In this document: piece by piece, positions 26,108-58,643 of the stretch
Position numbering within the stretch: the first letter of the stretch is position 1
Layout of the letters: the number at the start of each line of letters is the position of its first letter
Origin: Actinocorallia sp. API 0066
GTDB taxonomy: Bacteria; Actinomycetota; Actinomycetes; Streptosporangiales; Streptosporangiaceae
Length of the DNA: 64,000 bases
Assembly (NCBI RefSeq): GCF_020991275.1
Contig: NZ_JAJLQY010000004.1
Coordinates: 310,001-374,000 of the forward strand
Reading direction: 5' to 3'
Notes under the pieces: generated by a model
Seen by the model: the letters and a program-made list of their open reading frames with translations, nothing else
Databases searched by the model: none
Told to the model about the DNA's origin: nothing
Translations under genes and position numbers: made by a program

Positions 26108-26590
26108 TCAGGATCGGGTGGAGCCGGTGGGCCAGAGGATGGTGACGGGCTTGTCTTCGGTGCGGGCGTGGGTGACGACGTCGGCGGTGCCTCCGTGGCC
26201 GCCTGAGGGGCCTCCGTCCCAGACGGCGAAGAGGTGGTCTGAGAGGGCAGTGAGGATTCTGCTTGCCGCCATGTAGGCGGGGCGGCCGGAGGTGGGGTGG
26301 TCGGTGTAGTGGACGGTTTCGGCCTTCGTGAGGAGGGTGTCGAAGGTCTTGAGGTTGTCGGGGGTTACCTTGCGGTCGCGGTAGTCGGGGGCCGGTAGGA
26401 CGACCTCCAGGCGGCCTCCGACGTCTAGGACGACCTGGGCGAAGATCTGGTCTGCGCCGACGGCGAGGCATGAGATGCCGATGAGGTCGGGGCCTGTGTG
26501 AGGGGCGAGGGCTTCGCGGATGGCCTCGTAGACGAGATCGGCGGTGGCGTCGGTGAGGTTGGAGTGGCCGGTGATGCCGATCCGGGTCAC
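26108..26590 (-). CDS. SLOG/LOG-like Rossmann protein
   Basis: A 160-residue protein resembling the SLOG superfamily (DprA/LOG-like nucleotide-ligand binders): GITGHSN at the N-terminus, SCLAVGADQIFA, VVLPAPDYRDR and a C-terminal VWDGGPSGGHGGTADVV. SLOG proteins bind nucleotides or nucleotide-derived signals and appear in several bacterial conflict systems; a role here is inferred. The GTG start overlaps the stop of the TPR gene (GTGA), so the two are translationally coupled. Confidence 0.65.
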   Translation of the reverse strand: MTRIGITGHSNLTDATADLVYEAIREALAPHTGPDLIGISCLAVGADQIFAQVVLDVGGRLEVVLPAPDYRDRKVTPDNLKTFDTLLTKAETVHYTDHPTSGRPAYMAASRILTALSDHLFAVWDGGPSGGHGGTADVVTHARTEDKPVTILWPTGSTRS

Positions 26591-27774
26591 GCTGTCTCCT
26601 TGAGGGTGGCGGCTCTGGTGCGGAAGCGTTCGGCGAGTTCGCCGCGTAGGTCTGCGATCTCGGTTGAATCCTTGTACCTGGCGGACTCGCGGTGGAAGTC
26701 ATGGAGGCGGCGTTCCACGCGACCGGAGTTAATGGCGTCTTCGATCGTGACGGCCTGGCGGATGACGTGGACGGCTTCCTCTCGCTCGTTGAGCAGGAGG
26801 TGAGCCCGTCCGAGTCCGATGAGATCGAAGGCCCGATTGCGGAGGCGTCGGGGTGCTCGGAGTTCCAAGGCGCTGGTGATGTAGGTGGCCGAACGCTGAG
26901 CGAGATCGGTGTAGGGGCGACCTTCACGGGCCTGTGCGAGAGCGAGGTCTCGGTACCGGCCGCCGATGACCCCCGCGAGTTCGGAGGCGTCGAACGGGGT
27001 GATCCAGTAGGGCAGCCGGGTGGTTACGGGCTCGTGGAACGTCTCTTCCGCCTGGCCCACCGCACGGTGGAACGCCTGGACGCGGCCGGTCTTGGCGTAG
27101 GCCCATCCTTCTCGGGTGCGGAGCATGGACAGGACGCGTCCAGGGGCGTCGGTGCGCACTCCGTCCAGGGCGAGGCGGATGAGGTCCAGGGCGTCTTCGG
27201 GGCGGCCTAGGTCGAGCATCTGGCGGGCCATCGCGGCGAGGATGTTCGCTCCGAAGAGACGGCCGGATTCGCCGGAGGCGTGGGCGGCTCGGAGTGATAG
27301 CCGGTAGTACCGCTGGGCGAGGGGGTGGAGCCCGGCGTCATAGGACATGGACGCGGCAATCTTCGCGAGTTCGGCGAGAACTTCGAAGAGTCGGCGGGCG
27401 ATGTCGGGGGCCTGGTGCTCGCGGAGGAGTTGGGCCACCTCGTTCATCTGGCCGACGACGGCTTTGCGGCGGATGCCCATGCGGAACCGCCGGTCCCAGT
27501 GGCGGAGTGCCTTGGTCGTCGTCTCGATACGTCGGATCTCCTCTTCGTCCACGCTGCCGGGGCGGCTGAGCGTGGGGAGAGGACGGCCTCTGAGAACCCA
27601 GTGTTCCAGCGGCTCGGTGAGGGCGACTCCGAGGAGGAGAGCGCCTATCTGCTGAGTGGCTTCGCGTCGGTCAAGCATGAGATCGGTGAGGGTGAAGCGG
27701 GCGATGTCCTCAACCGTACGTGCTGCCTGCCAGAGTTCGGGGCCGGAGGTCTCCGTGAGTTCCTGCCTGGTCAT
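26587..27774 (-). CDS. TPR-repeat protein, like C-terminal half of actinomycete XRE-TPR regulators
   Basis: A 395-residue helical-repeat protein. Its first 60 residues (DIARFTLTDLMLDRREATQQIG ... LTEPLEHWVL) match the linker that, in many actinomycete proteins, follows an N-terminal XRE helix-turn-helix, and the rest forms TPR-like repeats (ALDLIRLALDGV, RNRAFDLIGLGRAHLLLNEREEAVHVI). The helix-turn-helix is missing. The open frame runs on to 27858 without homology, directly into the 5' end of the truncated polymerase gene on the other strand. ATG 27774 was chosen; 27804-27806 is an alternative. Coupled to the SLOG-like gene downstream. Confidence 0.7.
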   Translation of the reverse strand: MTRQELTETSGPELWQAARTVEDIARFTLTDLMLDRREATQQIGALLLGVALTEPLEHWVLRGRPLPTLSRPGSVDEEEIRRIETTTKALRHWDRRFRMGIRRKAVVGQMNEVAQLLREHQAPDIARRLFEVLAELAKIAASMSYDAGLHPLAQRYYRLSLRAAHASGESGRLFGANILAAMARQMLDLGRPEDALDLIRLALDGVRTDAPGRVLSMLRTREGWAYAKTGRVQAFHRAVGQAEETFHEPVTTRLPYWITPFDASELAGVIGGRYRDLALAQAREGRPYTDLAQRSATYITSALELRAPRRLRNRAFDLIGLGRAHLLLNEREEAVHVIRQAVTIEDAINSGRVERRLHDFHRESARYKDSTEIADLRGELAERFRTRAATLKETA

Positions 27775-27919
27775 GGTGGCCTCGTGAGGCGTCTCACCGG
27801 GGGGCATCGACGGTAAGCGGACCTTCATCGGGTTCACGGCGATAGAGGAAGGCCGCAAGGGCTATCGCGGCAGGTTCCTGGACGTCCGGACCCTCACGTT
27901 CGCTCTCACCGGCAAGAGC

Positions 27920-30460
27920 ATGTCTCTCGCGGACGCGTGCCAGGCGTTCGGCGTCCACGAGGGCAAGGGCGACCCTGGCGGCGGGCACGGCGTCATCACC
28001 CCCGCCTACGTCGATTACTGCCGACGTGACGTGCTGGCCACCGCCGGACTCATGGCGGCGACGCTCGCGGAATTCGAGCGACACCCCGTCAACCTAACGG
28101 CCCCGTACGCCTACTCACCCGCGTCCATCGCGAAGGCGTACCTGGACGCCATGGGGATCATTCCGCCCCTGGAACGCTGCCCCGACTTCCCGCCGCAGAT
28201 CCTCGGGCACGCCATGTCGGCGTTCTTCGGCGGACGCTCCGAATGCCACATCCGCAACACCCCCGTGCCCATCTCGCTCGTGGACTTCACCAGCATGTAC
28301 CCCACCGTTGACGCCCTGCTCGGACTCTGGCCCCACCTGACGTCATGCACCATCACCGCGACGGACGCCACCGCCGACGTAGCCGCCTGGCTCGACAGCC
28401 TCACCCTTGACGATCTGTTCCGGCCCGAGACCTGGCCCCAGCTCGTTGGCATCGCACAGATCAAGCCGTCCGGCGACATCCTTCCCGTCAAGGCCAGGTA
28501 CGGCACCGACCGCTCATGGTCCAACGCGGTCAACCCCCTCTACAGCCCCGAACCGCTCTGGTTCACCCTCGCGGATCTCGCAGCGTCCAAGATCCTCACC
28601 GGCCACGTGCCGGAGATCCAGGCCGCGTTCCGCTTCGCCCCCGAAGGCACCGCCGACGGCCTCAAGCCCGTCAACCTCCGGGGTGTCCTTCCCGTGGACC
28701 CCGCTGACGGAGACTTCTTCCGCGAAGTCGTCCAGGAGCGCCAGCGACTCAAGACGGCGACGCGGGACCACGATGCCCCGTGCGGGTGCGCTGGCTGCCG
28801 GACGCACGCGTTCCTCAAGATCCTCGCCAACGCGGGAAGCTACGGCATCCATGTGGAGATGCACAGGGAACGGGCATCCGGCCGCAAGCTCACCCCCGTC
28901 CGGGTATACGGCGCTCCCACCGAATCGTGGACCACCCGCGTGGACCGCCCCGAGGCACCCGCCGAACGCTGCTTCCCGCCCCTGGCCGCGTGTATCACGG
29001 GCGCTGGCCGCCTGCTGCTCGCGATGCTGGAGAAGTGCGTCACCGACTCCGGCGGCGTGTGGGCGCTCGCGGATACCGACTCCATGGCGATCGTGGCCGA
29101 CGAGCACGGAACCCTCATCCCGTGCCCCGGCGGCCCCCACCTCACCGACGACGGACGCCCCGCCGTCCGAGCCCTCACCTACAGCCAGGTAGAGCAGATC
29201 AGGCGACGCTTCGACACCCTCAACCCCTACGACCCGGACACCGTGCCCGAACTACTCAAGCACGAACTCTCCGCGTGGTGCCTGGCGATCTCCGCGAAGC
29301 GGTACGCCTGCTACCAACTCCGGCCCGACGGCACGCCCCGCGTGCTCGATCTCCCCGACGACGAGCCCGGCGGCATGGTCAAGCACAGTGAGCACGGACT
29401 CGGGCACCTCCTGAACCCCACCGACCCCGACAGCCCTGATCGGGACTGGATTCGCCAGCTCTGGGAATTGATCATCGCCGATGTCCACGGCGTCAAGGTC
29501 ACCGAACCCGCATGTCTCGACCGACCCGCCCTGTCCCGCACCACGATCACGCGACCCGCCCAACTGCGAGCGTTCAACACCGACCCCGGCCCCTACCGCG
29601 ATCAGATCAAGCCCTGGGGCTTCATGCTCACCGCTCATCTCTCGCTGAACGGACGCCCGGCCAGCGTCGCCCCTGACGCTCCCTTCCTCCTCGTCGCCCC
29701 CTACAACCCCGACCCGTCCACCTGGAACACCCTCGACTGGCGCAACCGCCACGCCCCCGACCAAGGCCCCTACAAGCTCACCACCGACCCCGACGCCTAC
29801 GACGAGACCAACCGCCCGCCCGACACCGCCCGAGCCCGCACCTACCGCGAAGTCCTCAACGCCTACCGGCGACACCCCGAACGCAAGGCGGCGGCCCCCG
29901 ACGGAACCCCCAGCACCCAGGACACCACGGGCCTACTCCGACGCCTCCCCGTCCGAGCCCCCTCCCTCCACCACCTCGGCAAGGAAACCAACGATCTCCA
30001 CGAGGTACAGGCCGGACTGATCAGCGACCCCGACGAAGTACAGGCCGACTACACCGAGCCCGATGCCGCCTGGCGCTCCCTGGCCCTCCGCCTCCTGTCC
30101 CGCATCCCTGCCGACCAACTAGCCCAGTTGATCACCAACGATCCGACGATCAAGGCCACCGTCACCGACCGCACCATCTACCGCATCCGAGCAGGAGCCG
30201 AACCCCAGCCCGACCTACGCCACGCCCTCACCCTCACCGCCCTACGCCTGGCCCTCACCGACCTACCGGACATCCCCACCCGCACCCCCGAACATCCCTG
30301 GCCGTCCGTACTCGGCTACTGGCGAGACCACCACCCCGAACCCACCACCCCCGCCCGAACCTGCCCGTGCGGCTGCGAGACCCCCCTCACTGGCCGCCAG
30401 AGCTACGCCTCCGACACGTGCCGCAAGAGCGTCAGCCGCCGCAACAAGACCACCACCTAA
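27920..30460 (+). CDS. Family B DNA polymerase, N-terminally truncated
   Basis: An 846-residue protein with the family B polymerase motifs in order: exonuclease III-type YCRRD (residues 33-37), motif A DFTSMYPT (Asp122), motif B K300xxxN304xxxYG, motif C DTDS (385-388) and the KRY motif (460-462). A Cys-rich tail (CPCGCETPLTGRQSYASDTC) suggests a zinc site. Homologous sequence continues in frame upstream to a stop at 27785-27787 (for example YRGRFLDVRTLTFALTGK at 27863-27916), but no start codon exists there and the exonuclease I and II motifs are missing, so the 5' end has been lost. Such polymerases are typical of phages, plasmids and linear elements. Whether the fragment is expressed is unknown. 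Confidence 0.75.
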   Translation: MSLADACQAFGVHEGKGDPGGGHGVITPAYVDYCRRDVLATAGLMAATLAEFERHPVNLTAPYAYSPASIAKAYLDAMGIIPPLERCPDFPPQILGHAMSAFFGGRSECHIRNTPVPISLVDFTSMYPTVDALLGLWPHLTSCTITATDATADVAAWLDSLTLDDLFRPETWPQLVGIAQIKPSGDILPVKARYGTDRSWSNAVNPLYSPEPLWFTLADLAASKILTGHVPEIQAAFRFAPEGTADGLKPVNLRGVLPVDPADGDFFREVVQERQRLKTATRDHDAPCGCAGCRTHAFLKILANAGSYGIHVEMHRERASGRKLTPVRVYGAPTESWTTRVDRPEAPAERCFPPLAACITGAGRLLLAMLEKCVTDSGGVWALADTDSMAIVADEHGTLIPCPGGPHLTDDGRPAVRALTYSQVEQIRRRFDTLNPYDPDTVPELLKHELSAWCLAISAKRYACYQLRPDGTPRVLDLPDDEPGGMVKHSEHGLGHLLNPTDPDSPDRDWIRQLWELIIADVHGVKVTEPACLDRPALSRTTITRPAQLRAFNTDPGPYRDQIKPWGFMLTAHLSLNGRPASVAPDAPFLLVAPYNPDPSTWNTLDWRNRHAPDQGPYKLTTDPDAYDETNRPPDTARARTYREVLNAYRRHPERKAAAPDGTPSTQDTTGLLRRLPVRAPSLHHLGKETNDLHEVQAGLISDPDEVQADYTEPDAAWRSLALRLLSRIPADQLAQLITNDPTIKATVTDRTIYRIRAGAEPQPDLRHALTLTALRLALTDLPDIPTRTPEHPWPSVLGYWRDHHPEPTTPARTCPCGCETPLTGRQSYASDTCRKSVSRRNKTTT

Positions 30461-31604: not shown

Positions 31605-32252
31605 ATGAGACACAGAGTCATGCAGACCGCTTCGAAGGAATGGATGACCCTCTTCCACCACGGCTCACCGCGCACCTACCTTCCCGGCCGCCCCTTGATG
31701 CGCCAAGGCGAGTCGGCCACCCATGTTCTCGCCGTCGTGTCAGGCCAGGTGAAGGTCCTCCAGACGCAGGAGGACGGATCAGAGCTGCTCCTCGCGGTAC
31801 GCGGCCGCGGCGAACTGCTCGGCGAGTACTCGGTGCTCGGCGGCTCGACGCGTTCGGCGACCGTGACGGCGCTGACCCGCGTCGAGGCCAAGATGCTCAC
31901 CGCCGACCGGTTCGTCGTGCTCCTCCAGCGCCACGGCCTCTCCTGGGACCTCCTCCGGCACGCCTACGGGCGGGTCCGCGAGGGCGAGGCGTGGCGCGCC
32001 GAGATGGCGACGCTACCCGCCGGCCGCCTGCTCGCCCGCGCGCTCCTGCGCCTGTCCCAGGCGACCCCCGGCGAAGTCCCCCTGGACCAGACCGACCTCG
32101 GCAGTGCGACCGGCCTGGCGCGCAGTACCGTCGCGGCGGAACTCGGCACGCTGCGTGACCTCGGCGTCGTCGTGACGCTGCGCCGGAGGGTCCGCATCCT
32201 CGACGGCGACGCCCTGGCCGCGCTGGCCGGGCTGAGCCAGCCGAACGTCTGA
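31605..32252 (+). CDS. Crp/Fnr-family cyclic-nucleotide-binding regulator
   Basis: A 215-residue protein with an N-terminal cNMP-binding barrel and C-terminal winged helix (ATGLARSTVAAELGTLRDLG). The phosphate-binding cassette is intact: GEYSVLGG with Gly73-Glu74, followed by Arg83-Ser84-Ala85-Thr-Val, the residues that hold the ribose and cyclic phosphate in Crp. No iron-sulfur cysteines are present, so it is Crp-like rather than Fnr-like. Starts at 31605, 31620 and 31644 are possible; 31644 has the best ribosome site (GAAGGA). It precedes a class III cyclase-like gene by 62 bases, suggesting a local second-messenger circuit. Confidence 0.82.
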   Translation: MRHRVMQTASKEWMTLFHHGSPRTYLPGRPLMRQGESATHVLAVVSGQVKVLQTQEDGSELLLAVRGRGELLGEYSVLGGSTRSATVTALTRVEAKMLTADRFVVLLQRHGLSWDLLRHAYGRVREGEAWRAEMATLPAGRLLARALLRLSQATPGEVPLDQTDLGSATGLARSTVAAELGTLRDLGVVVTLRRRVRILDGDALAALAGLSQPNV

Positions 32253-32314
32253 TTTCAGACATTCCCCGACAGACCGTCGCCGGAAGGTGGAAGCCCCAAT
32301 GAAAGGGCTCCACC

Positions 32315-33073
32315 ATGCACCCGTACCGAGGTCTGTTCGCCGTCGACATCGAGGACTACAGCGGCAACTCCGACAACGAGCTGCCCGTTCTGCACCGCGC
32401 GATGCTCGCCGCCCTCGACACCGCGTTCTCCGGTGCCTCCCTGGCGGACGTATGGGAGGCGGGCCGCCCCCAGACGGCTGGGGACAGTGTCTTCCTACTC
32501 GTTCCGCACGAGGCGCTGCCGCCGCTCGTCCACCCTTTCCCGGATCTGCTGCAGGGCGCGCTGTCAGAACGGGCGCGCGCCCTGCGTGCGGACGGGCTCG
32601 GCCTGCGCCTGCGGATGGCGCTCCACGTGGGGGCGGTGGACGACACCGACCCGGTGACGGCGGGGATCTCCACCGCGACGAACGAAGTGCACCGGCTCCT
32701 GGACTGCGAGCCGGTCCGGGAGGCGCTGAAGGGAAGCCATCCCGACGTCACCCGGCTCGCGGTCTGCCTCTCGGCGCGGGTTTATGAGGACGTCGTCGTC
32801 TCGGGTGCGTCCGGACTGCATCCGAGCCGTCTGGAGCCCGTGCGCGCGCGGGTGAAGCGCTTCGATCAGACCGCCTATCTTTACGTTCCCGTCCCGTCCC
32901 GGCGGGAGCCGCCGTCTCCGGCCGCAGGACAGACGGCCGAACCCGATCCGGCCCCCTCCGGCCCGCTGCCGTCCGGCTTGCCTTCGTGGGGGCCGATCAG
33001 CGTGCAGGGCGACGGCGTGAACAACGCGGTAGGCAACTGGACGCAGGGCAGCTTCCACCAGGGGCGGTCGTGA
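32315..33073 (+). CDS. Class III nucleotide-cyclase-like protein with C-terminal Gly/Asn/Gln motif
   Basis: A 252-residue soluble protein. Residues 5-170 fit a class III nucleotide cyclase domain: FAVDIEDYS with the first metal Asp (11), TAGDSVFLL with the second metal Asp (57), RMALHVGAV, and TNEVHRLLD with the transition-state pair Asn123/Arg127. The usual base-selecting Lys is Gln53 and the usual Asp is replaced (near Ala116), so adenine specificity is not expected. A Pro-rich linker (195-225) leads to the tail VQGDGVNNAVGNWTQGSFHQ, whose core AVGNWT recurs at the start of the next protein. The stop overlaps the next GTG. It could be an active cyclase of unknown base or a ligand sensor. 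Confidence 0.7.
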   Translation: MHPYRGLFAVDIEDYSGNSDNELPVLHRAMLAALDTAFSGASLADVWEAGRPQTAGDSVFLLVPHEALPPLVHPFPDLLQGALSERARALRADGLGLRLRMALHVGAVDDTDPVTAGISTATNEVHRLLDCEPVREALKGSHPDVTRLAVCLSARVYEDVVVSGASGLHPSRLEPVRARVKRFDQTAYLYVPVPSRREPPSPAAGQTAEPDPAPSGPLPSGLPSWGPISVQGDGVNNAVGNWTQGSFHQGRS

Positions 33074-35064
33074 GCACCGCGTCCGCTTTCGCCGGCCCGG
33101 TGGACGCGTCAGGCGACGACTCGTTCTTCGCCGTGGGCAACTGGACGGGAGGAGACTTCGTCCAGCAACAGATCAAGATCATGCGCGGGAACCCGAGCCT
33201 CACGGTGGGCGACGGGCACATCGCGGAGATCCTCTCCTTCCATGTGCCGTGCGCGAACCATGACACCGTGGTCAAGGTGCTCGCGGCGGAGGGCGCGGTC
33301 CTGCTTACCGGACCCGTTGGCGGCGGCCGGCGGACGACGGCGGTCGCCGCCCTGCGGGCCGTCGCGCCGGGTGTCCCGATCCGCGCGTTCTCGCCCGGCG
33401 CGGACGATCCGGAGGAGGTCTCGGCCAATGGGCGGCACGGGTATCTCGTCGCGGCTCCCGACCTGTCCTCGGAATCCGCCAGGACGGCCCTGCTCGACTG
33501 CCTGGAGCGGGCCGGGGCGGTGGGCGCGCACGTGGTCGTGCTCGGCCGCGCGCAGGACACGGCGCGGCTCGACGGGTGGCTCGTCCCCGTCGAGATAGAT
33601 CCGCCGTCCGCGCTCGCCGTGTACCGCCGCCACCTGCGCGCAAGGAGGCTGCCCGACGGGTGGACGTCCTGGGAGGCCGCGGCGAGGCTGCTGGACGGGC
33701 TGCTTCCGGTGGACGGAGGCAGGCTCGCCGAGATCGTCGCGGGCGTCACGCGCAAGGGTGGCCCGCCCGAGGCGCTGCGCGAGGAGGCCGAGCGCTCGTT
33801 CGCGCGTTGGGGCAGCGAGCTGACCGCCTGGTTCTCCCACCATCCCGACCCGTGCGAACGGGCCCTGCTGGCCGCCTCAGCGGTTCTCACGCCCGTCCCG
33901 GCGGACGCGGTGTACGGACCGGCCCGCGCCCTCGCCGCCCGCTTCTCGGTGACGGTGAACGGCGACGGTCTGGTGTGGCCGCCCGTGTCGGCGCTGCGCG
34001 GCCTGCTCGCCGCCGACGAGGCGGCCGACGACGCCGACGGGATCGCCTTCGCCCGGCACGGGTACGCGGCCGCCGTCCTGCACCACCTCTGGACGGAGCA
34101 GCCTCCGGCGCGCGAGCCCCTCCTGTCCTGGTACGCGACGGTACCCGGCGACCCGCAGGTCCCGGAATCGCGGCGGGAGGACCTGGCGCGGGCGTTCACG
34201 GAGTTCGCCGCCGCGCACGGGGCCGCGGCCTTGATCACCGCGACGGCTCGTCGTTGGGCGAGCGCGGGAAGACCCCGGCTCGCCTTCGTCGCACTCGCCT
34301 ACGCCTGCGTGGACAGGAACGCGGGGGCGACCGTACGTCGCGCGCTGTACGAGTGGGCTCGGGCGGCGCGTACCCCGCAGCCGCTCAAGTTGGTCGTGGC
34401 GGCGGTGTGCGAGGTACTCGGGCAGGTCTATCCGACGATGGCCCTCACCCGCCTGAAGCATCTGGCGACCCACGGCGACGACCAGGTCGCGCACGCCGTC
34501 GTGCGGGCGGCGGCCGGGATCGCCTCGGCCGGGCGGCCCGGCCTCGCGCTCGGCGCGGCTTTCGTGTGGTGCGCGCCCGGCGGCGGCGGGCTGTCAACGA
34601 TCGGGCGGACGCGCCGGACGCGTGCGGGGGCGCTGCTCTTCCTGACGCTCACCGCGCCCGACGCCGCACCCGATCCCCTCGACGTGCTGGACCGGCGCGA
34701 CCCGCGCGAGCCGGGTGCGGTGTGGCGGGCCGCGGTGCGGCTGGACGGCGGCCTGTGGCGGCCGGTGCTGCGGCACTGGCTCGACGCGGCGCTCGCCGAT
34801 CCGGAACGGCGCGCCGCGGTGGTGGCCGCCTTGCACGAGGTGCCCTGGGATCCGCTGACCGGGGTGCGTGAGGTCGCCCATGAGGGCCATCCGACCGCCG
34901 CCGCGATCGTCGTTGGCGCGGTGCGGGCGTGGGCCGCCGAGCGCCCCCGTGACCGGGAGCGCAGACGGCTCAGGGAAGACGTCGTCGTGCCTCTCATCGA
35001 ACCGTGGTGGACTCGTCTTCTTCTGGCCGCCTACGTCCGCGTCCGGAGGTTCGCCACGGGGTGA
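33070..35064 (+). CDS. Large helical protein with degenerate P-loop and N-terminal adapter motif
   Basis: A 664-residue protein. Residues 15-34 (GDDSFFAVGNWTGGDFVQQQ) repeat the motif found at the C-terminus of the cyclase-like partner. A P-loop-like strand follows, VLLTGPVGGGRRTTA (77-91), in which the Walker A lysine is Arg; a Walker B-like GYLVAAPDL lies near residue 137. The remainder is alpha-helical, and a basic, tryptophan-containing C-terminus (EPWWTRLLLAAYVRVRRF) may be amphipathic. The layout resembles inactive STAND-like conflict NTPases of actinobacteria. GTG at 33070 overlaps the cyclase gene stop (GTGA). Function unknown; nucleotide hydrolysis is unlikely. Confidence 0.65.
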   Translation: MSTASAFAGPVDASGDDSFFAVGNWTGGDFVQQQIKIMRGNPSLTVGDGHIAEILSFHVPCANHDTVVKVLAAEGAVLLTGPVGGGRRTTAVAALRAVAPGVPIRAFSPGADDPEEVSANGRHGYLVAAPDLSSESARTALLDCLERAGAVGAHVVVLGRAQDTARLDGWLVPVEIDPPSALAVYRRHLRARRLPDGWTSWEAAARLLDGLLPVDGGRLAEIVAGVTRKGGPPEALREEAERSFARWGSELTAWFSHHPDPCERALLAASAVLTPVPADAVYGPARALAARFSVTVNGDGLVWPPVSALRGLLAADEAADDADGIAFARHGYAAAVLHHLWTEQPPAREPLLSWYATVPGDPQVPESRREDLARAFTEFAAAHGAAALITATARRWASAGRPRLAFVALAYACVDRNAGATVRRALYEWARAARTPQPLKLVVAAVCEVLGQVYPTMALTRLKHLATHGDDQVAHAVVRAAAGIASAGRPGLALGAAFVWCAPGGGGLSTIGRTRRTRAGALLFLTLTAPDAAPDPLDVLDRRDPREPGAVWRAAVRLDGGLWRPVLRHWLDAALADPERRAAVVAALHEVPWDPLTGVREVAHEGHPTAAAIVVGAVRAWAAERPRDRERRRLREDVVVPLIEPWWTRLLLAAYVRVRRFATG

Positions 35065-49669: not shown

Positions 49670-49698
49670 CCCGCGCGGGGCGGGATCCCGGCGGGTCA
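49667..49698. terminator. Bidirectional hairpin containing both stop codons
   Basis: TGACCCGC (49667-49674) pairs with GCGGGTCA (49691-49698); the loop contains the inner palindrome CGGGATCCCG. The TGA of the plus-strand gene and the TGA (read on minus) of the facing gene form the outer ends of the stem. Confidence 0.65.
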
Positions 49699-52092
49699 TT
49701 CGGCGGGGTGGGGGGCGCCGGTGAGGTCGGCGCAGATGGTGCGGGCGCCGAAGTCGAAGGCGCTGCGGGTGGCGACGCAGGCGACGGCGGCGGGGCCGCC
49801 CTCGCGGGCCGTCTCGATGAGGTCGCGGGTCATGGTGAGGGTGCAGGCGGCCGCTTCGGGGCCCTCGTCGCAGCCGTACCAGACGGGGGTGCGGTCGACC
49901 GTCGCCGGATCGACGAACCTGCCCTTGGCCGGGACCTGGCCGCCGATGACGGCGGTGAGCGTCACCCGTCTGCCGACGGTCAGGCGGAACTCGCCGCAGC
50001 GGCGCTTGCCGGTGATCGGGTCGAAGGCCGAGCCGATCTCGTCGGTGCCGTGCGCGCAGGCCACCGGCGCGCCCTCGACCGACACCTTCCACTGGGTGGG
50101 CGCGGCGAGCGACACAACGCCGGACGCGGGCCTGCCCGTCGCGGCCTCCTCGGTGAGCGCGGCGCACTCGGCGCGGGCGTCGGCGTCGCGGGGGCTCACG
50201 GTCGTGGCGCAGACCGTGCGCTCGGCCTCGGCCGTCACGGTGCAGGTGCGGGACTCCGGGCCCTCGTCGCAGCCCCAGTAGCGCAGGTCTACGACGCCGG
50301 ACGGCAGCGCGGGCCGCACGACGACGAGGCGCGGCTCGCCCTTCTCGGCCCGGATCACCGAGGTGCAGTCGGTGCCGCCCGCCGCCGCGTCACAGGTGGC
50401 GTCGCCGGGCAGCTCCGCGCTCAGCACCGCCGTCCGCACCGCGAGCTTCACCGCGACGGTGTCGGACGCGGCGACGGCGACCGCCGCGTAGCCGCCCGCG
50501 ACGGCGGCCAGCGCCAGGCCGCCGCCGACCACGAACCTGAACCCCCTGCCCGTCGAGGGGACGGCGTGCTTCGCCCGGCTGCCTCCGCCGCTGCGGGGTG
50601 CGGCGTGCGCGGGCGTATGCGGCTCCGGCGCGCTCCGCTCCGCGCGCGGCTCGGGTACCGGCTCGGGCCGCCCGACGGGCTGGAGGTCGGCGACGGACGC
50701 GCCGTGCCGCAGCACCTCGCGCGCCTCCTCGGTGCGGACCGCCCCGGCCGGATCGCCGAGCTCCCGCCACAGCACGGCCGCCGCCGCGAGCGCCGAGGCC
50801 GACGCCGCGCGCCGTCCGGCGAGCAGCAGCCTCACCCCGTCCTCGTGCAGCAGATAGGCGAGGGTGCGCCTATCTCCGGCCCGTTCGGCGGCCGCCTTGC
50901 CCTGCTCCAGGATCCTGCCCCAGGCCCCGAGCCTCAACGACGTCGCGGCCCCCGGGGAGGCCGCCCGCGCCAGCAGCCCGCCGGACTCGGCGTCCCCGGT
51001 CCGCGAGGCCGCCGCGGTGACGGCGGCGAGGAGGTCGGCGTGCGCGGCGATCTCCTCGGGTGTGCGGTCCGGCGCCAACGCCCAGGCCCGCAGGACCCGC
51101 GCCGTCGCCCGGATCTCGGCGGCCGCGGGGTTCGGCGCGGTGACGGGCCCGGCGGCGATCCGGTGCCCGTCGACCGTCTCCACCGCGAGCCCCATCCGCG
51201 CGAGCCGCTCGGCCGCCGCCCCGCCCATCGGCACCAGGTCGTCGAGCAGGCTCGGCCGGACCGCCCCGCAGCCGGGCAGCCCCAGCAGGGCCAGCACCCG
51301 CAACGCCGCCTCGTCCAACGTGGCGATGAGCGTGGGCACAAGGTCGGCGACCCTCCCGGGCGGCGGCAACTCCCCTCCTATCGCCCCCGCCGCGGCCCTC
51401 AGCAGCCCCAGCGGCTCCCCTCCGGTGGCGTTCCAGACCGCCTCCGCCCTACTCCTCTCCCCGAGCTCCCCACCCAACACCGCCGCCAGCAGCGCGATAG
51501 CCGGATCCCTCCCAAGCCCGCCAAGGTCAAGCACCTGCACGTCCCCGTGATCAGCCCGCGACGCCCCGGAGAACACCACCCCACCCCGAGGCACCGCGTC
51601 CAACACCCGATCGACGGCCGCCGCCGCCAGATCATCGATCACCAACCGCACCGGCGCCTCCGCCAGCAACCTCCGCAGCTCCGCTTCCCCCGGCCGATAC
51701 CCCTCCGCGTAAAAACACGCCTCAAAGACGTCCTGCAGCAGATCCCCCGTCTCCTTCCCACCCGCCTCCAAAAACACAAGATCCTTCCGCCGATACAACC
51801 CAGCCCCCCGCCGCAACAACGCGCTCTTCCCCACCCCGGCCACCCCCGTCACCTGCACCCTCCGCCCTCCCTCCAACCCCCGAACCACCTGCCCCGCCTC
51901 CGCATCCCTCCCCAAAAACAACAACGCCCCCTTGGGCACCACCCCCTCCACCACCGCCCTCTCCCTGGGCCCCGACCTCTCCCCCTCCCCCAACACCCCA
52001 ACCCTCGACCCCTCCCCCTTCACCCTGACGAGGTACTCCCCCACCACAACCCCAACCCCCTTCATCCCAACTCCCCCGTTCATCCCACCCAC
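49696..52092 (-). CDS. Membrane-anchored STAND-type NTPase with duplicated extracytoplasmic domain
   Basis: A 798-residue protein. After FLGRDAEA comes a Walker A, TGVAGVGKSALLRR, and a Walker B, VRLVIDD, in a STAND/NB-ARC-like NTPase; a helical region with WNATGGEPLGLLRAAAG and TPR-like segments follows. One membrane helix (about 518-542) separates it from an extracytoplasmic part with two similar Cys-rich units, marked by YWGCDEGPESRTCTVT and YGCDEGPEAAACTLT. Signal input outside and NTPase inside is the simplest reading. Starts at 52101 (GTG), 52092 or 52065 are possible. Upstream DNA is degenerate and C-rich. Confidence 0.75.
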   Translation of the reverse strand: MGGMNGGVGMKGVGVVVGEYLVRVKGEGSRVGVLGEGERSGPRERAVVEGVVPKGALLFLGRDAEAGQVVRGLEGGRRVQVTGVAGVGKSALLRRGAGLYRRKDLVFLEAGGKETGDLLQDVFEACFYAEGYRPGEAELRRLLAEAPVRLVIDDLAAAAVDRVLDAVPRGGVVFSGASRADHGDVQVLDLGGLGRDPAIALLAAVLGGELGERSRAEAVWNATGGEPLGLLRAAAGAIGGELPPPGRVADLVPTLIATLDEAALRVLALLGLPGCGAVRPSLLDDLVPMGGAAAERLARMGLAVETVDGHRIAAGPVTAPNPAAAEIRATARVLRAWALAPDRTPEEIAAHADLLAAVTAAASRTGDAESGGLLARAASPGAATSLRLGAWGRILEQGKAAAERAGDRRTLAYLLHEDGVRLLLAGRRAASASALAAAAVLWRELGDPAGAVRTEEAREVLRHGASVADLQPVGRPEPVPEPRAERSAPEPHTPAHAAPRSGGGSRAKHAVPSTGRGFRFVVGGGLALAAVAGGYAAVAVAASDTVAVKLAVRTAVLSAELPGDATCDAAAGGTDCTSVIRAEKGEPRLVVVRPALPSGVVDLRYWGCDEGPESRTCTVTAEAERTVCATTVSPRDADARAECAALTEEAATGRPASGVVSLAAPTQWKVSVEGAPVACAHGTDEIGSAFDPITGKRRCGEFRLTVGRRVTLTAVIGGQVPAKGRFVDPATVDRTPVWYGCDEGPEAAACTLTMTRDLIETAREGGPAAVACVATRSAFDFGARTICADLTGAPHPAE

Positions 52093-54890: not shown

Positions 54891-57800
54891 CTACTTTGTC
54901 TTTGTATGGGCTATCGAACCATCAGGAAGCACAGTTGTCTTATTTGCAAACAGAGTGACTCCGTCGGTACTTACACGCTTCCGATAGATAGCATAGGAAC
55001 CCGGCACTCGCCCGGGAACTTTATAGCTAAAGTCAACCGCTCCATCAGCAAGCCGTGTAATCACTGGAATTTCGGCACCGGCTGGACTTTTTTTGCATGA
55101 ACTTCTTGAGACTGGCAAGCTGACCTGAGCTAAGAGAATCCAAACCTCCCGCCGCACGCATCTTGTCCATGTGGGTCATATTCTCGCAACTCGCGTTATG
55201 CACGAGAACGGGCGCGGACCCTGCGAGTACATAGTAGGTGTGGAGGGTGGGGATGGTTAGGTCGTAGGTGGTTTGGGTGGACTTGTAGTGGTGGGTGGAG
55301 AGGACGGTGGCGGGGGTGCCGTTGGGTTGTTGGAGCTGGTCGCCGGGGGTGATGGCTTCGGCGTCTACGAAGGAGGACTGGGTGATGTTGTAGAACTTGT
55401 GGTGGGCGGTGGTGGTGAGCTTGCCTACGGAGGGAGGGGCTCGGCCCTGTTCGGGGGTGGTGATCTTGAGGTCTACGTAGTCTCGGTCGGCCTTGGTGAC
55501 GATGACGGCTTCGACGGTGTGGATCTCGGGTTCGTCGTCGCCCGGGACGGAGCTTTGGACCTTGTCGCCCACCTTGATCTCGCTGATGGGTTTGGTGGAG
55601 CCGTCAGCCATCAGCACCAAGGTGGAACCGATAAAACTGTTCTTTCGTGGGCAGACGGTTGGCTTTTTGGGCTTGTTTCCTCCGTTGAGGAGGTCGCGGG
55701 CTTCCTGGGTGACCTTCGCATCGTCCTTCTTTCCACCGGAACCAGCGATGATCTTCGCTAGTGCAGCTGCTTTAGGACCGAGGAATGAAAGCAGTTTGAC
55801 GAGCTTGCCCGCAGGGATGAGACTCAGGCCCGCCATCGCGCAGGTGCCCAGCGTCGGAGACTTCAGACAGTGATAGAAATCTGCGAACGTCAGCTCCCAG
55901 GCCAGTTCTGCCAGAATTTTCAACGCATCGCCGATGCCGAAACTTGCCGGATTGATATTGACGCCGACAGGATCTTTGTTGGATTTTGCCGTCTTGACGG
56001 GACCGCGGCCGACCGGCTGCTGTTTGGCCTTCTTGACCGCAACCTTCTTTGCTGGCTTCTTGGCGTCGACGATCTTCTTTGAGTTGGTTTTCTTGGCGCG
56101 TGTCTGCTTGAGCTTGTTTTCGGCGGCCTTGAGCTTTTGGAGTGTCTTGGCTTCTTCGGCGGCCTTTTTGGCGGCGGCCTGGGACTTCTTCGTGTTGACG
56201 GGGGTGGTGGTGGTGAGGGCGCCTCGGCCGCCGGTGTTGGCGGTGGGGATGGCGGCGTGGCCGTCGGGGTCGAGCATGGTGAGGGGGTTGGCGTCGGCGT
56301 AGGCGAAGGCGTTGGCGGAGATGGAATTGGGGATGGGGCTTAGGGCGACGGTGTCCTTGTTCTGGAAGAGGCCCAGGGACGGGGTGTACCAGCGGGCGCC
56401 CATGTTGACCTTGCCGGTGGCGGCGTCGGTCCAGTCGGACTGGTAGCCGAGGTTGCCTTCCATTCCGGCGGTGGAGGTGACCTTGCCCAGGGGGTCGTAG
56501 GTGCGGGAGCCCGTCAGGCCCGTTGTCGGTTTGAAGTTCGCGACGACATCGTCATGCAGGTCGGTGAGAGCGAGGACGCCGTTCCCGGTGGGCGTCGCCG
56601 GGCCGATACCGATCAGGCCGTCGCCAGGGTCCCGCGTGTAGGTGTGGGAGCCGTCGGACGCGGCGTTGTTGCCCTTGCCGGAGTAGGCGAAGGTGATGTT
56701 CCCGGCGGGGCCGGAGGCGGAGACGTTACGGCCCAGGGCGTCGTTCACGTAGGTCTGGGTGCCGCCGGTGAGGGTGGCCTCCGTGATCTGCTGGCCGTAG
56801 GCGTCGCTCGTGTAATTGACGGTGTTTCCGGCCTTCGTGGACGTCAGGAGGGTGCCGCGCGCGGAGTACGTGTAGGTGGCTTCACCGTCGGACGTCAGTT
56901 GGTTGCGCGCGTCGTAGGTGAAGACGTCCGCGCCGAGCCGTACCCGGTTGCCTGAGTCGTCGTACTCGTAGACGGTCGTGGTGCTTCCGGTCGTCCAGTT
57001 GGTCAGCCGGTCGGCGAAATCGTAGGTGTAGGTGTTGGCGGACGCCCCGGAGACGCCGGTGGTGGTCTTGGAGGTGACGTTGTCGTTCAGGTCGTAGCCG
57101 TAGCTGACGGAGGCCAGGGTGGTGCCTCCGTTGTTCTTCAGCGTGTCGCCGGTGAGGCGTTGCAGCGGGTCGTAGTCGAAGGTGCGGGTGTTCGCGCCCG
57201 TCCCGTAGGAGATCGTCTGGAGCCGCGAGACGGTGTCGTAGTTGTAGGTGAGGGTGCTTCCGGACGCCGGGTCCTGGAGGGTCGTGAGGCGCTGCCCGGT
57301 GTCGTAGCCGTAGGTCGTGGTGCCGGCCGCGTCGGTGCGGGACGTCAGGAGGCCGTCGGCGTTGTAGGCGAAGGAGCTCGATCCGGCGGAGCCCGCCGTA
57401 GTGAGGAGGTTGCCCCGGTCGTCGTAGGTGAACGTCGTGTTCGTGGCGGGGACGGACATGCCGATGGACGAGGTGTTCACGGTGAGCACGCGCCCGTCCG
57501 CGTCGTAGGTGAAGCTCCGGTTAGCGGTCGCGGCCTCGGCGCCCGTGCCGGTCTGCCCGGTGACGGCCCCGAGCGCGTCGTACTGGGTGGTGGCGACCAC
57601 TCCGCCGGGTGACGTACGGGTGATCTCGCGGCCGTTGGCGTCGTAGCCGAAGGAGACGACGATGCCGTTGGACGCGTCCACGGGTTCGGTCTGGCTCGTC
57701 ACCCGGCCGAGGGCGTCGTTGGTGAAGGTGGTCGTGTGTCCCTTGGCGTCGGTCTCCGACAGCTTTGTCCCGGTGCCGTCGTAGGTGGCCGTCGCGGTTC

Positions 57801-58643
57801 TGAGGACGGTGCTTCCGTCGGTGTCCGTCTCGACGACGCGGACGGCCTGGTCGAGCAGGTTGTAGCCGAACCGGGTGACGGTGCCGTCGGCCCGCTCGAC
57901 CCGGTAGACCCGGTAGACCCGGTAGACCCGGCCAAGCTGGTCGTAGGCCGTCTCGGTAACGACACCCGCAGGGTCGGATGCCGCCGAGCGGGTCGGTCCT
58001 CGACGACCTGGCCGACGTCGTTGTACTCCCACGTGTGTTCGGCCTCGATCGGCGAGGAGCCTCCGGGCGGCGTGTAGTTCGGTCTGGTGACGCTGGTCCT
58101 GCGCCCTGCGGCGTCGTACGCGGTCGTGACGACGTTGCGTCATCTGGCCGTTGCCGGCGTTGTAGACGCCGACGAGGTGTGTCCACGTTCCGGCGGCGGG
58201 GGTGGTGGTGCCGGTGGCGACGACGCCCTGTGGATTGACGACGTCGCCGCTCATCCGCTGGAAGGTCCATTTGCCGTTCCAGCCGCCGTACTGCAGGTAG
58301 AAGCCGCTCTGCTGGACACCGTCCTGGCTGACGAGGGTCTGAGTGTTCCCACCGAGCGTCGTCGGCTTGATCCAGGCCGACACGGTGAAGCTCTGTGTCG
58401 TGTCGACGACCGGGCCGTTGGTGGCGATCTGGGTGCCCGCCGCGCCGGTCATCGAGGCGGCGGAGTCGGCCCAGGTGACATTGTCGCTAGCGGTGGCCGT
58501 CGCGCCGGTCCCGGAGGAGTCGGTGACCTGGCGGCCCGACGTCTGGTCGAGCTTCCACCAGCCGACGGGGTGCCCCGGCTCGTCCCCCGCGAGCGACTCG
58601 CTGGTCTTGCGGCCCATCGCGTCGTAGGTGAAGGACGTGACGA
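54891..58643 (-). pseudogene. Rhs/YD-repeat polymorphic toxin, truncated and frameshifted
   Basis: The sequence starts directly after the neighbouring stop with VVTSFTYDAMGRK, so the 5' part is missing. A LamG domain (GWWKLDQTSGRQ, SFTVSAWIKP) is followed by YD repeats in three frames between about 58140 and 57960, then one long YD frame, the Rhs core end (ANPLTMLDPDG), a Lys-rich linker, and a pretoxin HINT domain (STLVLMADGSTKPISEIKVG to APVLVHN). After LKKFMQK a seven-A run (T at 55088-55094) shifts the frame: the long frame stops at 55045, while the toxin tip (SPAGAEIPVITRLADG, VPGRVPGSYAIY) continues to 54891 in the +1 frame. Not functional as read. Confidence 0.82.
57902..57928. repeat. 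9-bp microsatellite, three copies
   Basis: CGGTAGACC is repeated three times in tandem, giving Tyr-Arg-Val repeats inside a YD unit on the minus strand. Expansion keeps the frame. Confidence 0.85.

What the first reader, a model, noticed from the sequence alone, without database searches (positions are those of the whole stretch)
31605..35064. Self-contained Crp - nucleotide cyclase - degenerate P-loop cassette
Seen: three consecutive genes encode a Crp-type regulator with an intact cNMP phosphate-binding cassette (Gly73-Glu74, Arg83-Ser84-Ala85), a class III cyclase-like protein with its metal Asp pair and Asn/Arg pair, and a coupled 664-residue protein with an unusable P-loop. Known: CBASS and Pycsar defence systems pair a cyclase with a receptor/effector; Crp proteins bind cyclic nucleotides. 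Inference: this is a local second-messenger circuit, possibly stress or anti-phage signalling, with the large protein as sensor or scaffold. I cannot judge novelty without a database search.
Basis: partly seen in the sequence, partly recalled or inferred. Interest (0 to 1): 0.82.

Follow-up and report, generated by a model that had tools for sequence, protein, structure and literature searches.

The report
Cyclase and inactive sensor sharing tag
Three neighbouring genes in a soil-type actinobacterium form a conserved signalling cassette in which a dead-ATPase immune-receptor-like protein and a cyclic-nucleotide-making enzyme carry the same short, co-evolving tag, probably letting the receptor switch on the enzyme, whose product is then read by a gene regulator.

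Summary
A Crp-type regulator, a class III cyclase-like protein and a 664-aa protein with a degenerate P-loop lie at 31605-35064. The cassette is conserved: 46 non-redundant loci carry all three genes, in Streptosporangiales and Streptomyces. Flanking genes vary.

It differs between lineages but matches within each locus (0 of 10,000 permutations). In the 7.0-Mb genome only these two places match it.

The large protein is a STAND-like, HEAT-repeat protein whose Walker A lysine is lost in 54 of 55 homologues. Elsewhere the same family sits directly behind a TIR protein, also with matching tags; 16 such loci without the cyclase have no Crp, against Crp at 55 of 64 cyclase loci. The effector slot is thus swappable: TIR, or cyclase plus Crp.

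Best reading: a BASS/RHIM-like adaptor-coupled sensor-effector signalosome, probably immune-type, in which the STAND-like protein templates and activates the cyclase and Crp converts cNMP into transcription. Amyloid formation, cyclase activity and the trigger are inferred. It is not CBASS or Pycsar. New variant of a known kind.

The parts
31605..32252 (+). Crp-family regulator, 215 aa (start may be 31620)
   Evidence: Pfam cNMP_binding 3.3e-20, HTH_Crp_2 1.4e-11; CAP and Crp/Fnr chains of the PDB match the profile at 1e-25 to 1e-31
31821..31862 (+). cNMP phosphate-binding cassette G73-E74...R83-S84-A85-T86
   Evidence: G73 54/54, R83 54/54, T86 53/54, E74 46 E + 4 D of 54 homologues
32315..33073 (+). 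class III nucleotidyl cyclase-like protein, 252 aa
   Evidence: AF2 pLDDT above 90 over the domain; Foldseek/VIA best matches are class III cyclases; D11, D57, R127 conserved
32990..33061 (+). adaptor motif at the cyclase C-terminus (residues 226-249), GPISVQGDGVNNAVGNWTQGSFHQ, after a Pro-rich linker
   Evidence: shared with the large protein's N-terminus; own-pair local score 67, rank 1 of 55; pLDDT under 50
33070..35064 (+). 664-aa degenerate STAND-like protein with C-terminal helical (HEAT-like) repeats
   Evidence: Foldseek: SAMD9, a STAND-TPR protein (6mfv), AVAST5/Avs4; VIA AAA+ Z about 13 over residues 44-248; homologues match Pfam nSTAND3 (4/22) and HEAT_2 (3/22)
33094..33165 (+). adaptor motif at the N-terminus of the STAND-like protein (residues 9-32), GPVDASGDDSFFAVGNWTGGDFVQ
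   Evidence: 13/24 identical to the cyclase motif; best match of the whole genome to the motif profile even with window rows left out
33310..33339 (+). degenerate Walker A (GPVGGGRRTT, residues 81-90)
   Evidence: Lys replaced by R/V/A/Q/T/N in 54 of 55 homologues
33199..33813 (+). AAA+/STAND-like domain (residues 44-248)
   Evidence: AF2 and VIA-align

Best explanation
An adaptor-coupled sensor-effector cassette. (1) The 664-aa protein is an NLR/STAND-like sensor whose NTPase site is dead and whose HEAT-like repeats probably sense a trigger (inferred). (2) Its N-terminal ~24-residue motif pairs with the matching motif at the cyclase's C-terminus, most likely by homotypic, BASS/RHIM-like (cross-beta) templating (motif sharing and co-variation shown; amyloid nature inferred). 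(3) Clustering brings class III cyclase domains together; such enzymes work as dimers with active sites at the interface (established knowledge), so clustering should switch on synthesis of a 3',5'-cNMP of unassigned base (inferred). (4) The adjacent Crp protein binds the product and changes transcription (binding site conserved; binding inferred). In sister loci the same sensor family carries a TIR effector instead, which points to an immune or conflict role.
For: Three-gene unit conserved with stop/start overlaps, flanks variable; congruent divergence, Mantel r 0.90. Shared motif: own-pair score 73.1 against 39.7 for mismatched pairs, 0 of 10,000 permutations, 49 of 55 pairs above the 99th percentile of shuffled tails; between distant loci mismatched pairs fall to the shuffled level (28.7 against 26.5) while own pairs stay at 75; own pair beats the nearest relative's partner, Wilcoxon p 4e-4. 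Streptomyces and other held-out loci: 5 of 6 again share a motif. Whole-genome motif search finds only the two places. TIR swap with motif sharing and no Crp there (0 of 16, against 55 of 64). Catalytic Asp pair and Arg, and Crp cassette, retained. Paralogues of the cyclase in the same genome carry EAD2 (Pfam 5e-17), or a RHIM-like tail beside STAND and NB-ARC/TPR genes. AF2 leaves the motifs unstructured, as expected of adaptors outside an assembly.
Against: No experiment. The motif matches no profile that I could run, and BASS1-10 profiles were not available. Walker A/B loss argues against ATP-driven oligomerisation of the canonical NLR kind, so how the sensor would switch is unclear. Base-specifying residues of the cyclase are non-canonical and N123 is not conserved. 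In ~10 Actinomadura species the cassette sits at a syntenic site, more like a resident regulatory system than a mobile defence island. Phylogeny contributes to the motif match: among close relatives own pairs win only 64-78%.
Confidence: 0.62

Rival explanations
1. The shared motif is an ordinary folded docking or co-assembly element, not an amyloid: the cyclase is bound all the time to the STAND-like scaffold, which regulates it allosterically.
For: No amyloid assay; motif is Gly/Asn-rich but not scored by a trained detector. Constitutive GTGA-coupled translation would suit a stable complex.
Against: Position (effector C-terminus, sensor N-terminus), length, locus-specific co-variation, disorder in AF2, the effector-side GGD / sensor-side SRD asymmetry that parallels GND/ARD in a fungal amyloid motif (PMC9815663), and RHIM-like VIQAG..GG tails in distant members all resemble amyloid signalling motifs.
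Confidence: 0.25
2. A resident stress or developmental regulator, not immunity: cyclase, sensor and Crp tune expression in response to a physiological cue.
For: Crp output is transcription, not a toxin; syntenic in ~10 Actinomadura species; no PADLOC model for the window proteins.
Against: Same sensor family carries TIR proteins elsewhere; patchy presence; cyclase paralogues with EAD2 and RHIM-like tails beside STAND genes; motif diversification typical of conflict systems.
Confidence: 0.3
3. The cyclase domain is catalytically dead and serves only as a nucleotide binder or structural partner.
For: Base-specifying Lys is replaced (Q/E) and N123 is not conserved; inactive cNMP cyclase domains are reported in vWA components of ternary conflict systems (PMC7159879).
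Against: D11 63/64, D57 64/64 and R127 64/64 are kept over wide divergence, and a Crp with an intact cNMP site accompanies the cyclase but never the TIR variant.
Confidence: 0.12

Closest known systems
BASS (bacterial amyloid signalling sequence) NLR-effector signalosomes (Dyrka et al. 2020, as described in PMC7889193 and PMC8086366)
   Same: Adjacent or overlapping genes; motif at the C-terminus of an effector and the N-terminus of an NLR-like protein; pairwise similar motifs; actinobacteria; TIR effectors are known there and are found in our sister loci.
   Different: Effector is a class III cyclase with an added Crp regulator (BELL, CHAT and TIR are the effectors named in the reviews read); STAND site is degenerate; the window's motif was not tested against BASS1-10 profiles.
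VMAP and iSTAND ternary conflict systems (Kaur et al. 2020, PMC7159879; 2021, PMC8195603)
   Same: Inactive STAND protein; cNMP cyclase domains as signal generators; effector-associated adaptors; multicellular actinobacteria. A paralogous cyclase in this genome has EAD2.
   Different: No MoxR or vWA gene in the cassette; adaptor is a short motif, not a folded EAD; a dedicated Crp is always beside the cyclase.
Pycsar
   Same: Class III cyclase next to a cNMP-binding protein; fold match to a cUMP synthase (Z 14.8).
   Different: Receptor is a DNA-binding Crp without TIR or membrane effector; extra STAND-like gene; no PycC profile match to the cyclase.
DUF2652-type class III cyclase-like proteins with Crp neighbours (PMC4886424)
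   Same: Divergent soluble class III cyclase-like proteins in Actinobacteria, some near cNMP-binding genes.
   Different: No STAND partner and no shared adaptor motif described.

Membership tests
BASS-type amyloid NLR signalosome | adjacent or overlapping effector and NLR-like genes | tested here: met
   GTGA overlap in the window; 40 of 55 pairs have the same 4-base overlap, the rest lie within 10 bases
BASS-type amyloid NLR signalosome | similar short motif at effector C-terminus and NLR N-terminus | tested here: met
BASS-type amyloid NLR signalosome | functional NTP-binding NLR (NB-ARC/NACHT with Walker A Lys) | tested here: not met
   STAND/AAA+ fold and repeats present but Walker A Lys lost in 54/55
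BASS-type amyloid NLR signalosome | motif belongs to a described BASS1-10 profile | not testable with these tools
   profiles not held
BASS-type amyloid NLR signalosome | motif forms fibrils and cross-seeds | not testable with these tools
   needs peptides
class III nucleotidyl cyclase | fold | tested here: met
   Foldseek and VIA
class III nucleotidyl cyclase | two metal Asp and transition-state Arg | tested here: met
   D11, D57, R127
class III nucleotidyl cyclase | canonical base-specifying Lys/Asp pair and transition-state Asn | tested here: not met
   Lys replaced by Gln in the window, Glu or Gln in relatives; Asn in 21/64
Crp/CAP | cNMP-binding domain with phosphate-binding cassette plus Crp winged helix | tested here: met
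Pycsar | cNMP-gated toxic effector (TIR or membrane) | tested here: not met
   receptor is a Crp with HTH only; no fourth conserved gene
Pycsar | PycC profile match of the cyclase | tested here: not met
   no PycC match for the window cyclase at E up to 1 or for 27 homologues at E up to 0.1
CBASS | CD-NTase fold cyclase | tested here: not met
   class III cyclase fold instead
iSTAND/VMAP ternary system | MoxR and vWA partner genes | tested here: not met
   no further gene family conserved at more than 11 of 46 loci; flanking window genes examined are unrelated
STAND NTPase | Walker A Lys and Walker B Asp | tested here: not met
   K in 1/55; Walker B D in 26/55 and A in the window: works like, but not as, an active STAND

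The most novel reading that the evidence does not exclude
A modular signalosome in which an NTPase-dead STAND sensor uses a cognate amyloid-like tag to switch on a class III cyclase, turning an immune-receptor-like event into a cyclic-nucleotide-driven transcriptional programme through a dedicated Crp; the same sensor scaffold is re-armed with TIR enzymes in sister loci. This would be an amyloid-gated cNMP pathway, not described in the papers I could read.
Probability: 0.4. Interest if true: 0.85.

Novelty: new variant of a known kind. Interest (0 to 1): 0.66.

Why it matters
Bacterial NLR-like systems are known mainly as triggers of cell death or NAD loss. This cassette would couple the same receptor logic to a cyclic nucleotide and a transcription factor, so that an infection- or stress-sensing receptor reprogrammes genes. 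The TIR-for-cyclase swap on one sensor family makes the adaptor tag directly testable by tag exchange. A family-wide loss of the Walker A lysine also asks how a STAND-like sensor works without ATP.

Tried and rejected
CBASS and Pycsar membership: tested and not met. Plasmid or phage carriage: five Streptomyces/Embleya plasmid records with ~32% identical cyclase-like proteins only, no phage match. Shared Crp operator upstream: no palindrome common to the loci; small groups of close relatives share one (CGGTGTA-N4-TACACCG in L119 and L130). A fourth conserved gene: none at more than 11 of 46 loci. Shared motif as a recent DNA duplication: only 569 of 882 identical residues use the same codon (507 expected), a slight excess that allows an old duplication or occasional conversion but no recent copy. 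In the leave-window-out motif search the cyclase-side copy fell below the first-look filter; only the STAND-side copy was found. One held-out locus (L151) shows no shared motif. The cassette itself has no Rfam, Pfam, NCBIfam or PADLOC name for the cyclase; Rfam was not run.
Full report
Observation. The three genes are present as described. The large protein starts with GTG at 33070, inside the cyclase stop (GTGA), giving 664 residues. The Crp has cNMP_binding and HTH_Crp_2 domains. The cyclase has no Pfam, NCBIfam, PADLOC or PHROG match, but its AlphaFold2 model (mean pLDDT 81; catalytic domain mostly above 90) has class III nucleotidyl cyclases as Foldseek's top 50 and as all VIA rows shown (Cya2 Z 16.0, rmsd 3.7 over 168; a Pycsar cUMP synthase 7r65 Z 14.8; Ma1120 14.7).

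Conservation. A search of 151 genomes of the family found relatives of the cyclase in 96. With 40 neighbourhoods from there and 30 named loci from GTDB genomes (Actinomadura, Spirillospora, Actinocorallia, Streptosporangium, Nonomuraea), 70 cyclases scored above 190 bits: 52 had a Crp directly upstream and the STAND-like gene directly downstream, 9 only Crp, 9 only the STAND-like gene. Six loci are duplicates; 46 non-redundant complete trios remain. Distances between the three proteins are congruent (Mantel r 0.90 for each pair; permutation maxima 0.26-0.42). Flanking gene families are shared by at most 11 of 46 loci, a syntenic Actinomadura group. Streptomyces and another family also have it.

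Residues. Over 64 non-redundant cyclases D11 is kept in 63, D57 in 64, R127 in 64, N123 in 21. Over 54 Crp proteins with the region, G73 and R83 are invariant, E74 is E or D in 50. Over 55 STAND-like proteins the Walker A lysine is kept in one and the Walker B aspartate in 26. So enzyme and receptor sites are under constraint, and the P-loop is degenerate as a family trait. The base-specifying residues of the cyclase are unusual, so the substrate cannot be assigned.

The large protein. The AlphaFold2 model (pLDDT 84) shows an AAA+/STAND-like domain at residues 44-248 (VIA Z about 13 to AAA+ proteins) followed by helical repeats. Foldseek's best rows include SAMD9, a STAND-TPR protein, AVAST5 and Avs4 (only the first is below E 0.001). 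Homologues match Pfam nSTAND3 and HEAT repeats. The overall shape is that of an NLR-like sensor; what it senses is unknown.

The shared motif. The cyclase ends, after a proline-rich linker, with GPISVQGDGVNNAVGNWTQGSFHQ; the large protein begins with GPVDASGDDSFFAVGNWTGGDFVQ (13 of 24 identical). Such pairs occur throughout the family, with lineage-specific sequences (for example GDGAQSAFGNTV in both proteins of L040, GEHGIQ.YN in both of L074, DQIGGASHRA / DDIGGASHRA in L075). Over 55 loci the own-pair local score averages 73.1 against 39.7 for mismatched pairs, higher than all 10,000 permutations; 49 of 55 exceed the 99th percentile of shuffled tails. For loci whose catalytic domains are 25-40% identical, mismatched pairs score 28.7, the level of shuffled sequence (26.5), while own pairs score 75.1. 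With one representative for each 60% cluster (n = 10) the result stands (no permutation reached it). Shared ancestry contributes among close relatives, but own still beats the partner of the nearest relative (35 against 19; Wilcoxon p 4e-4). Six loci not used to form the idea gave the same picture in five. In this genome the motif profile matches only these two places (E 1e-9 and 1e-8; next 3.6); with the window's own rows left out, the N-terminus of the STAND-like protein is still the only match (E 0.008). Codons differ at about a third of identical residues, so this is kept at the protein level.

What it resembles. Bacterial amyloid signalling sequences sit at the N-terminus of an NLR and the C-terminus of an effector encoded next door (PMC7889193). 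More distant members of our set have RHIM-like tails (VIQAG..GG), like BASS3. In 13 pairs the effector side ends GGD and the sensor side SRD, the same asymmetry as GND/ARD reported for a fungal amyloid motif (PMC9815663). Whether the window's motif forms amyloid is not shown.

The swap. The STAND-like family is in 77 of 151 family genomes. At 16 loci without the cyclase, twelve have a TIR-like protein directly upstream (Pfam TIR_2 in eight of eight tested), whose C-terminus matches the STAND-like N-terminus (own 49.1 against 36.7, 0 of 10,000 permutations for 14 pairs, two of them with an unidentified upstream protein). No Crp was found at any of the 16, against Crp at 61 of 70 cyclase loci (Fisher p 7e-11 computed for 0 of 15). 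On the tree the TIR-type sensors nest with five cyclase-type sensors in one supported clade, so effectors have been exchanged. This places the cyclase in the effector slot and ties Crp to the cyclase.

Same genome, other wiring. Three cyclase paralogues exist. One ends in EAD2 (Pfam 5e-17), the adaptor of known conflict systems. One has the RHIM-like tail VIGTLIQAGEIVGGF and overlaps a gene whose product starts LEVHGSVDAAVQVGRLV and has an intact P-loop, with an NB-ARC/TPR gene on its other side.

Mechanism and limits. Shown: three-gene unit, retained catalytic and cNMP-binding residues, degenerate STAND site, cognate motif pairs, effector swap. Inferred: homotypic templating, activation of the dimer-dependent cyclase by clustering, cNMP identity, Crp regulation, immune purpose. 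Papers read do not describe a cyclase-plus-Crp effector with such a motif, but the founding BASS paper (Dyrka 2020) was not in the library, so priority is not certain.

Noticed in passing
L036 5606-7164 (G000 contig C3): Cyclase paralogue with a RHIM-like tail overlapping a STAND-type gene that has a RHIM-like N-terminus and an intact P-loop, beside an NB-ARC/TPR gene: a likely second signalosome in the same genome.
   Followed up: partly
L044, L119, L122, L127, L129, L130, L133: A second cyclase-like gene of the type ending like the EAD2 paralogue lies about 1.4-2 kb upstream of the trio in several Actinomadura.
   Followed up: no
L163 and L175: The STAND-like gene follows an unidentified protein (no Pfam hit) whose C-terminus shares its motif: a possible third effector type.
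   Followed up: no
L058, L060, L064, L066, L069: Crp plus cyclase loci without the STAND-like gene; the cyclase ends in a different conserved tail (VVFEAVPDA-like) and the next gene is another conserved family.
   Followed up: no
window 27920-30460: 846-aa protein weakly like family B DNA polymerase (Pfam 0.11) with no plasmid match, near an NsdA-family TPR regulator at 26587-27858: possible remnant of a mobile element.
   Followed up: partly
window 49696-52092 and 55045-58617: A STAND-like protein with an intact P-loop and an RHS/YD-repeat-type ORF flank a GC dip (52-56 kb, 57-59% GC).
   Followed up: no
L119 and L130, upstream of Crp: Palindrome CGGTGTA-N4-TACACCG that could be a Crp operator in close relatives.
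   Followed up: no
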